Both the position numbers and the translations under genes were made by a program. From Haladaptatus paucihalophilus DX253 (GTDB lineage Archaea > Halobacteriota > Halobacteria > Halobacteriales > Haladaptataceae), in the NCBI RefSeq assembly GCF_000376445.1, contig NZ_AQXI01000001.1, positions 280,962-344,961 of the forward strand: a stretch of 64,000 bases of DNA, in the 5' to 3' direction. Shown here one piece after another: positions 1,494-2,402 of this stretch. Position 1 is the first letter of the stretch. Every line of letters begins with the position of its first letter. Under the pieces are notes generated by a model. That model was not told where the DNA came from. It did no database searches and saw only the letters and a program-made list of their open reading frames with translations.

Positions 1494-1681
1494 TCGTTAC
1501 CACTCTCTGCTTGGCCTTGCTCGGTCCATTCGAGGTCGCGCGGTTCGCGGCCGAGGTCGGCGTTCTTCTCGCACTTCGCCGAGCAGTAGTGGATGGTCGT
1601 TCCGTCTACGCGGACGAACATCGTTCCCGTACCGGGCTCGATGTCGTTTCCGCAGTAATCACACTCTCGCGTCTGTGGCAT
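1490..1681 (-). CDS. rpl24e: Large-subunit ribosomal protein eL24 (L24e)
   Basis: A 63-aa zinc-finger ribosomal protein of the large subunit. It has CDYC at 7-10 and CSAKC at 33-37, the C-x2-C / C-x3-C pattern of archaeal L24e, followed by a short acidic tail. The ATG overlaps the TAA of rps28e (TAATG) and the stop overlaps the ndk start (ATGA), so it is tightly coupled in the four-gene operon. Start choice is fixed by the [12 protein letters not shown]-terminus typical of the family. Confidence 0.96.
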
Positions 1682-1908
1682 TATTGTCCTCCGATGGAGT
1701 CTGCCTCGCGTGCGGTCTCTCGCAACTGGAGCACGTCGCCCTCTCGGACCGGTCCGAGACAGTTGCGAGTGATGATTCGCCCTTGGTTGCTGCCTTCGCG
1801 GATGCGGCATTTGACCTGCATGGCCTCGCCGTGCATCCCCGTCTTACCGACGATTTCGATGACCTCGGCGGAGGTGGAGTCCTCCTGTCCGGTCTCTTCA
1901 GCACTCAT
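1681..1908 (-). CDS. rps28e: Small-subunit ribosomal protein eS28 (S28e)
   Basis: A 75-aa ribosomal protein with an OB-like fold. The segment [20 protein letters not shown] followed by the [20 protein letters not shown] region is diagnostic of S28e. It lies 11 bases downstream of rpl7ae and overlaps rpl24e by one base (TAATG). Co-expression with L7Ae, eL24 and Ndk is expected from the common promoter upstream of rpl7ae. Confidence 0.97.
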
Positions 1909-1919
1909 TGTGAGTCACC

Positions 1920-2282
1920 TCACCGAAGTTCCTCGACCTTCGAGGCGATGTCGTCCACGTCGTCGCTGGCTTCGCCAGCGTCAACGATGGCGGCGGCGGC
2001 GCTGCCGACTTCGAGTCCGGCCGCGTGACCGACGTCGTCCTGCGTCTCGACGAAGATGAAGGGGATGCCCTTCTCGTCGGAGAGTTCGGGCAGGTGCATG
2101 ACGATTTCCTCGGGCGTAACGTCTTCCGCGACGTAGATGAGGTCGGCGTTGCCGCGCTCGACAGCCTTGGTCGTCTCGTTCGTTCCTTTCTTTACGCTTC
2201 CTGTGTCCCGTGCGACTTCGAGCGCGTCGAGCGCTCGGTCCTGCAGGTCGGCTGGGACGTCGTAATTGACGTATACTGGCAT
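1920..2282 (-). CDS. rpl7ae: Ribosomal protein L7Ae (kink-turn RNA-binding protein)
   Basis: A 120-aa archaeal L7Ae. Besides its place in the large ribosomal subunit, the family binds kink-turns in box C/D and H/ACA guide RNPs and in archaeal RNase P. Key stretches are [20 protein letters not shown] (about 31-50, the RNA-binding region), [10 protein letters not shown] and the IPFIFV strand. It is the first gene of the operon, with a strong Shine-Dalgarno (GGGAGGTG) 8 bases before the ATG. Its leader carries a box C/D-type element (2297-2368), suggesting that L7Ae may control its own translation; autoregulation through a leader k-turn is reported for other archaea. Confidence 0.97.
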
Positions 2283-2290
2283 AGGTTGTT

Positions 2291-2370
2291 CACCTCCCTA
2301 CGCGCTGGCTCAGGCTCCCCTGCCGGATGAGTCCTGTACGGCTAGGAGCATCATCAACCCCGCGTAGGTT
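2291..2370 (-). promoter_or_regulatory. Box C/D kink-turn element in the rpl7ae leader
   Basis: Read on the minus strand, an 8-bp perfect stem CCTACGCG (2368-2361) / CGCGTAGG (2304-2297) encloses a box C core TGATGA (2356-2351) and a box D CTGA (2313-2310). Directly next to the boxes GGT/GCC can pair, with a GG/AG mismatch before the outer stem, which is the expected terminal architecture of a C/D kink-turn. The outer stem touches the Shine-Dalgarno (2298-2291). The 37-nt segment between the boxes could be a methylation guide or just a loop. Either a cis L7Ae operator or a small C/D guide RNA overlapping the leader fits. Confidence 0.7.
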
Positions 2371-2372
2371 GT

Positions 2373-2402
2373 ACACTCCAGTAGAGTGTGCCCCCATAAA
2401 AA
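2373..2402 (-). promoter_or_regulatory. Probable rpl7ae operon promoter
   Basis: Minus-strand TTTTTAT at 2402-2396 is a good haloarchaeal TATA element. A transcription start about 25 bases on would fall near 2372, just before the outer stem of the C/D element. A small perfect hairpin, ACACTC-5nt-GAGTGT (2373-2389), lies between TATA and the predicted start, and could be an operator rather than part of the RNA. Confidence 0.55.

What the first reader, a model, noticed from the sequence alone, without database searches (positions are those of the whole stretch)
2291..2402. Box C/D kink-turn in the leader of the L7Ae operon, next to its Shine-Dalgarno
An 8-bp closing stem (2297-2304 with 2361-2368), box C TGATGA and box D CTGA sit between a good TATA element and the rpl7ae ATG, and the stem touches the ribosome site. 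L7Ae binds this very structure. So the protein may block its own translation, or the leader may be processed into a C/D guide RNA with a 37-nt internal segment that could target rRNA or tRNA. Leader k-turn control of L7Ae is known in other archaea, but I do not know whether this haloarchaeal arrangement is described.
Basis: partly seen in the sequence, partly recalled or inferred. Interest (0 to 1): 0.8.

Follow-up and report, generated by a model that had tools for sequence, protein, structure and literature searches.

The report
Haloarchaeal L7Ae kink-turn mRNA leader
The start of the mRNA for ribosomal protein L7Ae in salt-loving archaea folds into a conserved kinked hairpin ending at the ribosome-binding site, most likely so that L7Ae can switch off its own production; this control is known elsewhere, but the haloarchaeal version is larger and has an unexplained conserved loop.

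Summary
On the minus strand, the whole rpl7ae 5' UTR (2371-2283) is one structured RNA: an 8-bp closing stem (P1), a GG/CC extension, a kink-turn (U-GAU-GA opposite GA) and a second helix (P2) with an apical AGGA loop. P1 ends inside or beside the Shine-Dalgarno sequence. All 81 haloarchaeal sources examined have it once, and 366 of 391 class genomes score at E<=0.01. Sixteen of the 20 listed non-scorers carry it with apical inserts too long for the model, three early-branching genomes carry a minimal k-turn hairpin instead, and one was not read. Covariation far exceeds a tree-based null (23 paired double changes against 3.2 expected, 0 of 300). The tandem G-A nucleotides are invariant in 68 of 68 distinct sequences.

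Best explanation: L7Ae autoregulation through its own leader. This is established for Sulfolobus and Archaeoglobus, but was tested in Haloferax only with about 50 bp, which in Haloferax leaders seen here excludes the bulged strand. The guide-RNA alternative is not supported.

The haloarchaeal element is absent from Rfam 15 and in no paper I found as a structure. It is a new variant of a known kind. The invariant apical GGA is unexplained.

The parts
2395..2402 (-). TATA element TTTTTATG of the rpl7ae promoter
   Evidence: sequence; TATA-like box centre lies 25-27 nt before the leader's first model position in 78 of 80 leaders where one was found, so transcription probably starts at the leader's first bases
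2371..2371 (-). predicted transcription start, +/- 2 nt (inferred)
   Evidence: constant TATA spacing; no RNA data available here
2361..2368 (-). P1, 5' strand (CCTACGCG)
   Evidence: covariation with 2297-2304
2358..2359 (-). C-helix next to the k-turn, 5' strand (GG)
   Evidence: pairs with 2307-2308; G-C to A-U double change in Halovenus and Haloarcula
2350..2357 (-). k-turn bulged strand TTGATGAT: L1-L3 GAU 2355-2353, 1b-2b GA 2352-2351, 3b U 2350
   Evidence: L3 U, 1b G and 2b A invariant in 68/68 distinct sequences
2345..2349 (-). P2 / NC-helix, 5' strand (GCTCC)
   Evidence: covariation with 2314-2318
2339..2342 (-). P2 upper helix, 5' strand (GCCG)
   Evidence: pairs with 2322-2325; G-C/A-U/U-A at the last pair
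2332..2335 (-). invariant apical AGGA motif (function unknown)
   Evidence: conservation; fixed distance from the k-turn
2322..2325 (-). P2 upper helix, 3' strand (CGGC)
2314..2318 (-). P2 / NC-helix, 3' strand (GGAGC)
2309..2313 (-). k-turn non-bulged strand: box D CTGA 2313-2310 (2n-1n GA 2311-2310), then -1n G 2309
   Evidence: G and A invariant 68/68
2307..2308 (-). C-helix, 3' strand (CC)
2297..2304 (-). P1, 3' strand (CGCGTAGG), end merges with the SD
   Evidence: 13 nt from 1n to P1 end in 74/76 leaders
2290..2297 (-). Shine-Dalgarno GGAGGTGA
   Evidence: matches the complement of the 16S 3' end; overlaps P1 by 1-3 nt in 48/81 leaders and starts within 4 nt of it in the rest
1920..2282 (-). 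rpl7ae (L7Ae/eL8), 120 aa, first gene of the operon
   Evidence: phmmer E 6.9e-60 to H. marismortui L7Ae (1s72_F) and 1.3e-36 to 6hct_C
1681..1908 (-). S28e-like gene, second in the operon
   Evidence: ORF; name assigned from knowledge of the family, not searched

Best explanation
The rpl7ae 5' UTR is an autoregulatory ribosomal-protein leader. Transcription starts about 3 nt before P1 (inferred from TATA spacing). The RNA folds into P1, a k-turn and P2 (shown by covariation). Free L7Ae, when in excess over rRNA and guide RNAs, binds the k-turn (inferred). It thereby locks the C-helix/P1, whose 3' end is part of or touches the SD, so the 30S subunit cannot load (inferred). Compared with the leaders of methanogens and of three early-branching genomes, where the SD lies 0-3 nt from a small k-turn hairpin, the haloarchaeal form has a fixed 13-nt P1 strand between k-turn and SD and an enlarged apical domain.
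For: Single copy and only at rpl7ae: 366 of 391 class genomes score at E<=0.01, essentially one hit each, and the one extra hit (E 0.002) lies inside an unrelated coding region. Of the 20 listed non-scorers, 16 carry the leader with longer apical inserts, three have a minimal k-turn hairpin, one was not readable. Covariation of P1, C-helix and P2. Tandem G-A nucleotides and L3 U invariant. In the four lineages with a 4-nt instead of a 5-nt connector the -1b:-1n pair is C-G, U-A or U-G, i.e. a standard 3-nt-bulge k-turn. Fixed k-turn to SD distance. Constant TATA spacing. L7Ae here aligns over its full 120 aa with L7Ae proteins of solved ribosomes and k-turn complexes. Autoregulation through leader k-turns shown in S. 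acidocaldarius (PMC5539422) and for A. fulgidus in vitro with a crystal structure (PMC6298567).
Against: No binding or expression data for this structure. P1 plus P2 is predicted stable without protein (-38 kcal/mol), unlike the weak stems described in PMC6298567, so L7Ae may act by steric block rather than by folding the hairpin. Most leaders have an extra U (UUGAU), not the textbook 3-nt bulge with a Watson-Crick -1b:-1n pair. SD overlap with P1 is only 0-3 nt. The invariant apical AGGA is not explained by this model.
Confidence: 0.78

Rival explanations
1. The leader is processed into a stable C/D guide RNA whose internal segment directs 2'-O-methylation.
For: Box C and D sequences flanked by a terminal stem. 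Small RNAs of 42 and 27 nt were mapped between rpl7ae and its neighbour in Haloferax mediterranei (PMC5852579), though their place inside the leader could not be checked.
Against: The internal segment is a covarying helix P2, its apical part is not conserved in length (19-92 nt), and complementarity to the own rRNA operon is 9 nt, equal to shuffles. No Rfam C/D family matches it.
Confidence: 0.04
2. The leader is a two-site element: the k-turn binds L7Ae, and the invariant apical AGGA loop is a second recognition or docking site, for another protein or for the SD end of the same RNA brought close by the kink.
For: G38 67/67, G39 65/67, A40 66/66. AGGA stays 15-17 nt from the k-turn in 71/76 leaders while the distal part varies widely. 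The P1 and P2 arms are of similar length. The motif is absent where the leader is a minimal hairpin.
Against: Pairing of AGG with the P1 CCU strand is contradicted by leaders with CCC/GGG P1 and an unchanged loop. No rRNA mimic found. No candidate protein.
Confidence: 0.2
3. The structure acts mainly on mRNA stability or transcription elongation, not on ribosome loading.
For: The 5' end is probably inside the structure from the first bases, which could protect the transcript.
Against: P1 consistently ends at the SD with a fixed spacing, and known relatives act on translation (PMC5539422, PMC6298567).
Confidence: 0.12

Closest known systems
L7Ae k-turn leader of Sulfolobus acidocaldarius and other archaea (Daume et al. 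2017, PMC5539422)
   Same: k-turn strands in the 5' UTR of l7ae next to the SD. The authors already noted a further-upstream Kt-b strand for H. volcanii in their alignment and saw some repression with an H. volcanii 50-bp construct by Sulfolobus L7Ae.
   Different: The ~50-bp H. volcanii construct probably cannot hold this structure: in Haloferax leaders here the bulged strand lies 108 nt before the ATG. I found no secondary structure or covariation for haloarchaea in the main text; the supplement was not readable here.
Archaeoglobus fulgidus L7Ae UTR k-turn (Huang, Ashraf and Lilley 2019, PMC6298567)
   Different: There the stem is weak and only folds with L7Ae. Here P1 and P2 are long, GC-rich and covarying, the connector usually has one extra U, and the apical domain has an invariant AGGA.
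Other archaeal ribosomal leaders (eL15, S15 Halobacteria, L4; Eckert and Weinberg 2020, PMC7247131)
   Same: Lineage-restricted structured leader in front of its own ribosomal protein gene.
   Different: That list has no haloarchaeal L7Ae/eL8 leader among its new motifs.
Archaeal C/D guide sRNA
   Same: Box C/D k-turn closed by a terminal stem.
   Different: No guide spacer, no C'/D' pair seen; the middle is a helix.

Membership tests
L7Ae-binding autoregulatory k-turn leader | located in the 5' UTR of l7ae | tested here: met
L7Ae-binding autoregulatory k-turn leader | tandem G-A / A-G opposite strands with U at L3 | tested here: met
   invariant in 68/68 distinct sequences
L7Ae-binding autoregulatory k-turn leader | 3-nt bulge with a -1b:-1n pair | tested here: inconclusive
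   met in four lineages with 4-nt connectors (C-G, U-A, U-G); most leaders have one extra U and a U-G pair
L7Ae-binding autoregulatory k-turn leader | SD within or next to the k-turn stem | tested here: met
L7Ae-binding autoregulatory k-turn leader | L7Ae binds it and lowers translation | not testable with these tools
   needs experiment; the published H. volcanii test used ~50 bp only (PMC5539422)
C/D guide sRNA | single-stranded guide complementary to rRNA or tRNA | tested here: not met
   rRNA operon tested only: 9 nt, same as shuffles; segment is helical; tRNAs not tested
C/D guide sRNA | stable processed small RNA | not testable with these tools
   only indirect report in H. mediterranei
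Any Rfam 15 family | covariance-model match | tested here: not met

The most novel reading that the evidence does not exclude
The haloarchaeal leader is a two-input switch: L7Ae-induced kinking brings the invariant apical AGGA loop, held at a fixed distance on an arm about as long as P1, to the SD end of P1 or to a second partner, so that control depends on two signals rather than on L7Ae alone.
Probability: 0.18. Interest if true: 0.68.

Novelty: new variant of a known kind. Interest (0 to 1): 0.5.

Why it matters
It gives a near-universal, covariation-supported structure for a regulatory RNA in a whole class of archaea with genetic model organisms (Haloferax, Halobacterium), where L7Ae feedback has so far been tested only with a construct that appears too short to hold the bulged strand. 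It shows how a minimal k-turn hairpin, seen in methanogens and three early-branching genomes, may have grown into a larger leader, and it leaves an invariant apical loop whose role can now be tested directly.

Tried and rejected
Guide-RNA reading: rejected (helical segment, no rRNA complementarity above shuffles). Alternative pairing of the P2 CUCC strand with the SD (anti-SD switch): CUCC is replaced by GUGGC, GCUUC or GCUUU in L024, L026, L014, L015 and L036, so rejected as a general mechanism. Pairing of the apical AGG with P1 CCU: loop unchanged where P1 is CCC/GGG, rejected as a covarying pairing. Extra copies in the genome: best other hits E 0.74 and 7.7, none convincing. Extension to nop5-fibrillarin as in Sulfolobus: in the window genome and most close relatives nop5 looks leaderless (TTTAAA about 25 nt before the ATG) and no leader k-turn was seen upstream in the 25 relatives. 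Homology outside the class: the model finds no good match in the other genomes of the phylum (best E 0.12), although many have a small k-turn-like hairpin before l7ae. All-pairs G-test with a tree null gave no pair below E 0.05 (best 0.067); the structure-given test was decisive. H. mediterranei small RNAs could not be placed because that genome was not recognisable among the 15 genomes of the genus searched.

Full report
OBSERVATION. The finding reads on the minus strand. The rpl7ae ORF starts at 2282 and the SD GGAGGTGA is at 2297-2290. Between its strands, 5' to 3', lie GGG, TTGATGAT (2357-2350), GCTCC, TA, GCCG, TACAGGACTCATC, CGGC, AGG, GGAGC, CTGAG, CC, AG. ViennaRNA folds this as P1, an internal loop and P2 at -38.2 kcal/mol (z -2.86).

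COMPARATIVE EVIDENCE. Eighty rpl7ae loci from named haloarchaeal records all carry the same leader. A covariance model from 29 short leaders finds exactly one significant hit in each of 81 sources, and hits 366 of 391 class genomes at E<=0.01. Of 20 listed genomes without a hit, 16 carry the leader with long apical inserts, three (L136-L138) carry a minimal k-turn hairpin, and one was not readable for lack of flank. The unlisted five non-hits were not inspected. Sliding the 3' partners by 1-3 columns loses the signal. On the tree of 68 distinct sequences the structure shows 23 branches with paired double changes against 3.2 +/- 1.7 in 300 tree-based null simulations (none as high), and 94.6% paired cells against 79%.

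K-TURN. L3 U, 1b-2b GA and 2n-1n GA are invariant in 68/68. Most leaders have U-UGAU or UU-GAU before GA, one nucleotide more than a standard k-turn. Four lineages lack the extra nucleotide (Halalkalicoccus and L049: UCAU; L043/L046: CUGU; L114: CCGU; L124: CUGU), and there the base before the 3-nt bulge pairs with -1n as U-G, U-A or C-G. This supports a k-turn with a -1b:-1n pair. 3b is U, C, A or G and 3n is C, U or A. By the rules in PMC6298567 (3b C or 3n G needed for ion-driven folding) most would not fold in ions alone; that is an inference from rules measured on other k-turns.

GEOMETRY. A TATA-like box lies 25-27 nt before model position 1 in 78 of 80 leaders, so transcription should begin at the leader's first bases. 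P1 ends 10-17 nt before the ATG. The SD match begins 1-3 nt inside P1 in 48 of 81 and within 4 nt after it in the rest. The distance from 1n to the P1 end is 13 nt in 74/76 leaders. The apical GGA is nearly invariant (67/67, 65/67, 66/66) and 15-17 nt from the k-turn in 71/76 (the five others are probably mis-parsed by an earlier GGA), while the stretch beyond it varies from 19 to 92 nt.

OUTSIDE THE CLASS. Other genomes of the phylum often show a small hairpin TGATGA-stem-GA directly followed by the SD. In about half of the 23 leaders tested it exceeds shuffles at p about 0.05 or less, and in the rest it does not. The haloarchaeal model finds no good match there. The likely history (inference) is growth of a minimal k-turn hairpin into a larger leader within the haloarchaea.

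FUNCTION. L7Ae autoregulation through a leader k-turn is shown in S. acidocaldarius and supported by structure for A. fulgidus (PMC5539422, PMC6298567). For H. volcanii only about 50 bp was tested. In three Haloferax leaders here (H. gibbonsii, H. sulfurifontis, H. denitrificans) the last 50 nt contain the non-bulged strand but not the bulged one, which starts 108 nt before the ATG. H. volcanii itself was not among the loci, so the same gap there is an inference, although the paper's legend says its Kt-b lies further upstream. The best reading is therefore translational autoregulation by L7Ae, with the SD end of P1 as the control point. Binding, repression and which downstream genes are affected are inferred, not shown.

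GUIDE READING. The internal segment is a helix with covariation; its longest complement in the genome's own rRNA operon is 9 nt, as in shuffles. tRNAs were not tested.

KNOWN STATUS. No Rfam 15 match for the leader in the window or in 15 other loci. The r-leader survey PMC7247131 lists haloarchaeal S15 and euryarchaeal eL15 but no L7Ae leader. Literature searches found no haloarchaeal description beyond PMC5539422; only open-licence PMC papers were searched and supplements could not be read.

Noticed in passing
window 2373-2390: Short palindrome-like stretch CACTCTACTGGAGTG between the TATA element and the predicted start; some relatives have other inverted repeats there. Could be a regulator site.
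   Followed up: no
L207 and relatives (nop5): nop5-fibrillarin appears leaderless in the window genome and most close relatives, with no leader k-turn, unlike the Sulfolobus and Thermococcus situation described in PMC5539422.
   Followed up: partly
L136, L137, L138 upstream of rpl7ae: Three early-branching genomes of the order have a minimal k-turn hairpin (for example CGUGAUGA-AGCGC-GCUA-GCGCU-GAACG) whose C-helix abuts the SD, in place of the large leader.
   Followed up: partly
Haloferax mediterranei, between HFX_2748 (rpl7ae) and HFX_2747 (PMC5852579 tables): Two published small RNAs (42 nt and 27 nt, opposite strands) map next to rpl7ae; possibly leader fragments.
   Followed up: partly
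L020, L072, L117 and other long leaders: One or two variable hairpins inserted after the apical AGGA, total apical length up to 92 nt in the aligned set, different between genera.
   Followed up: no
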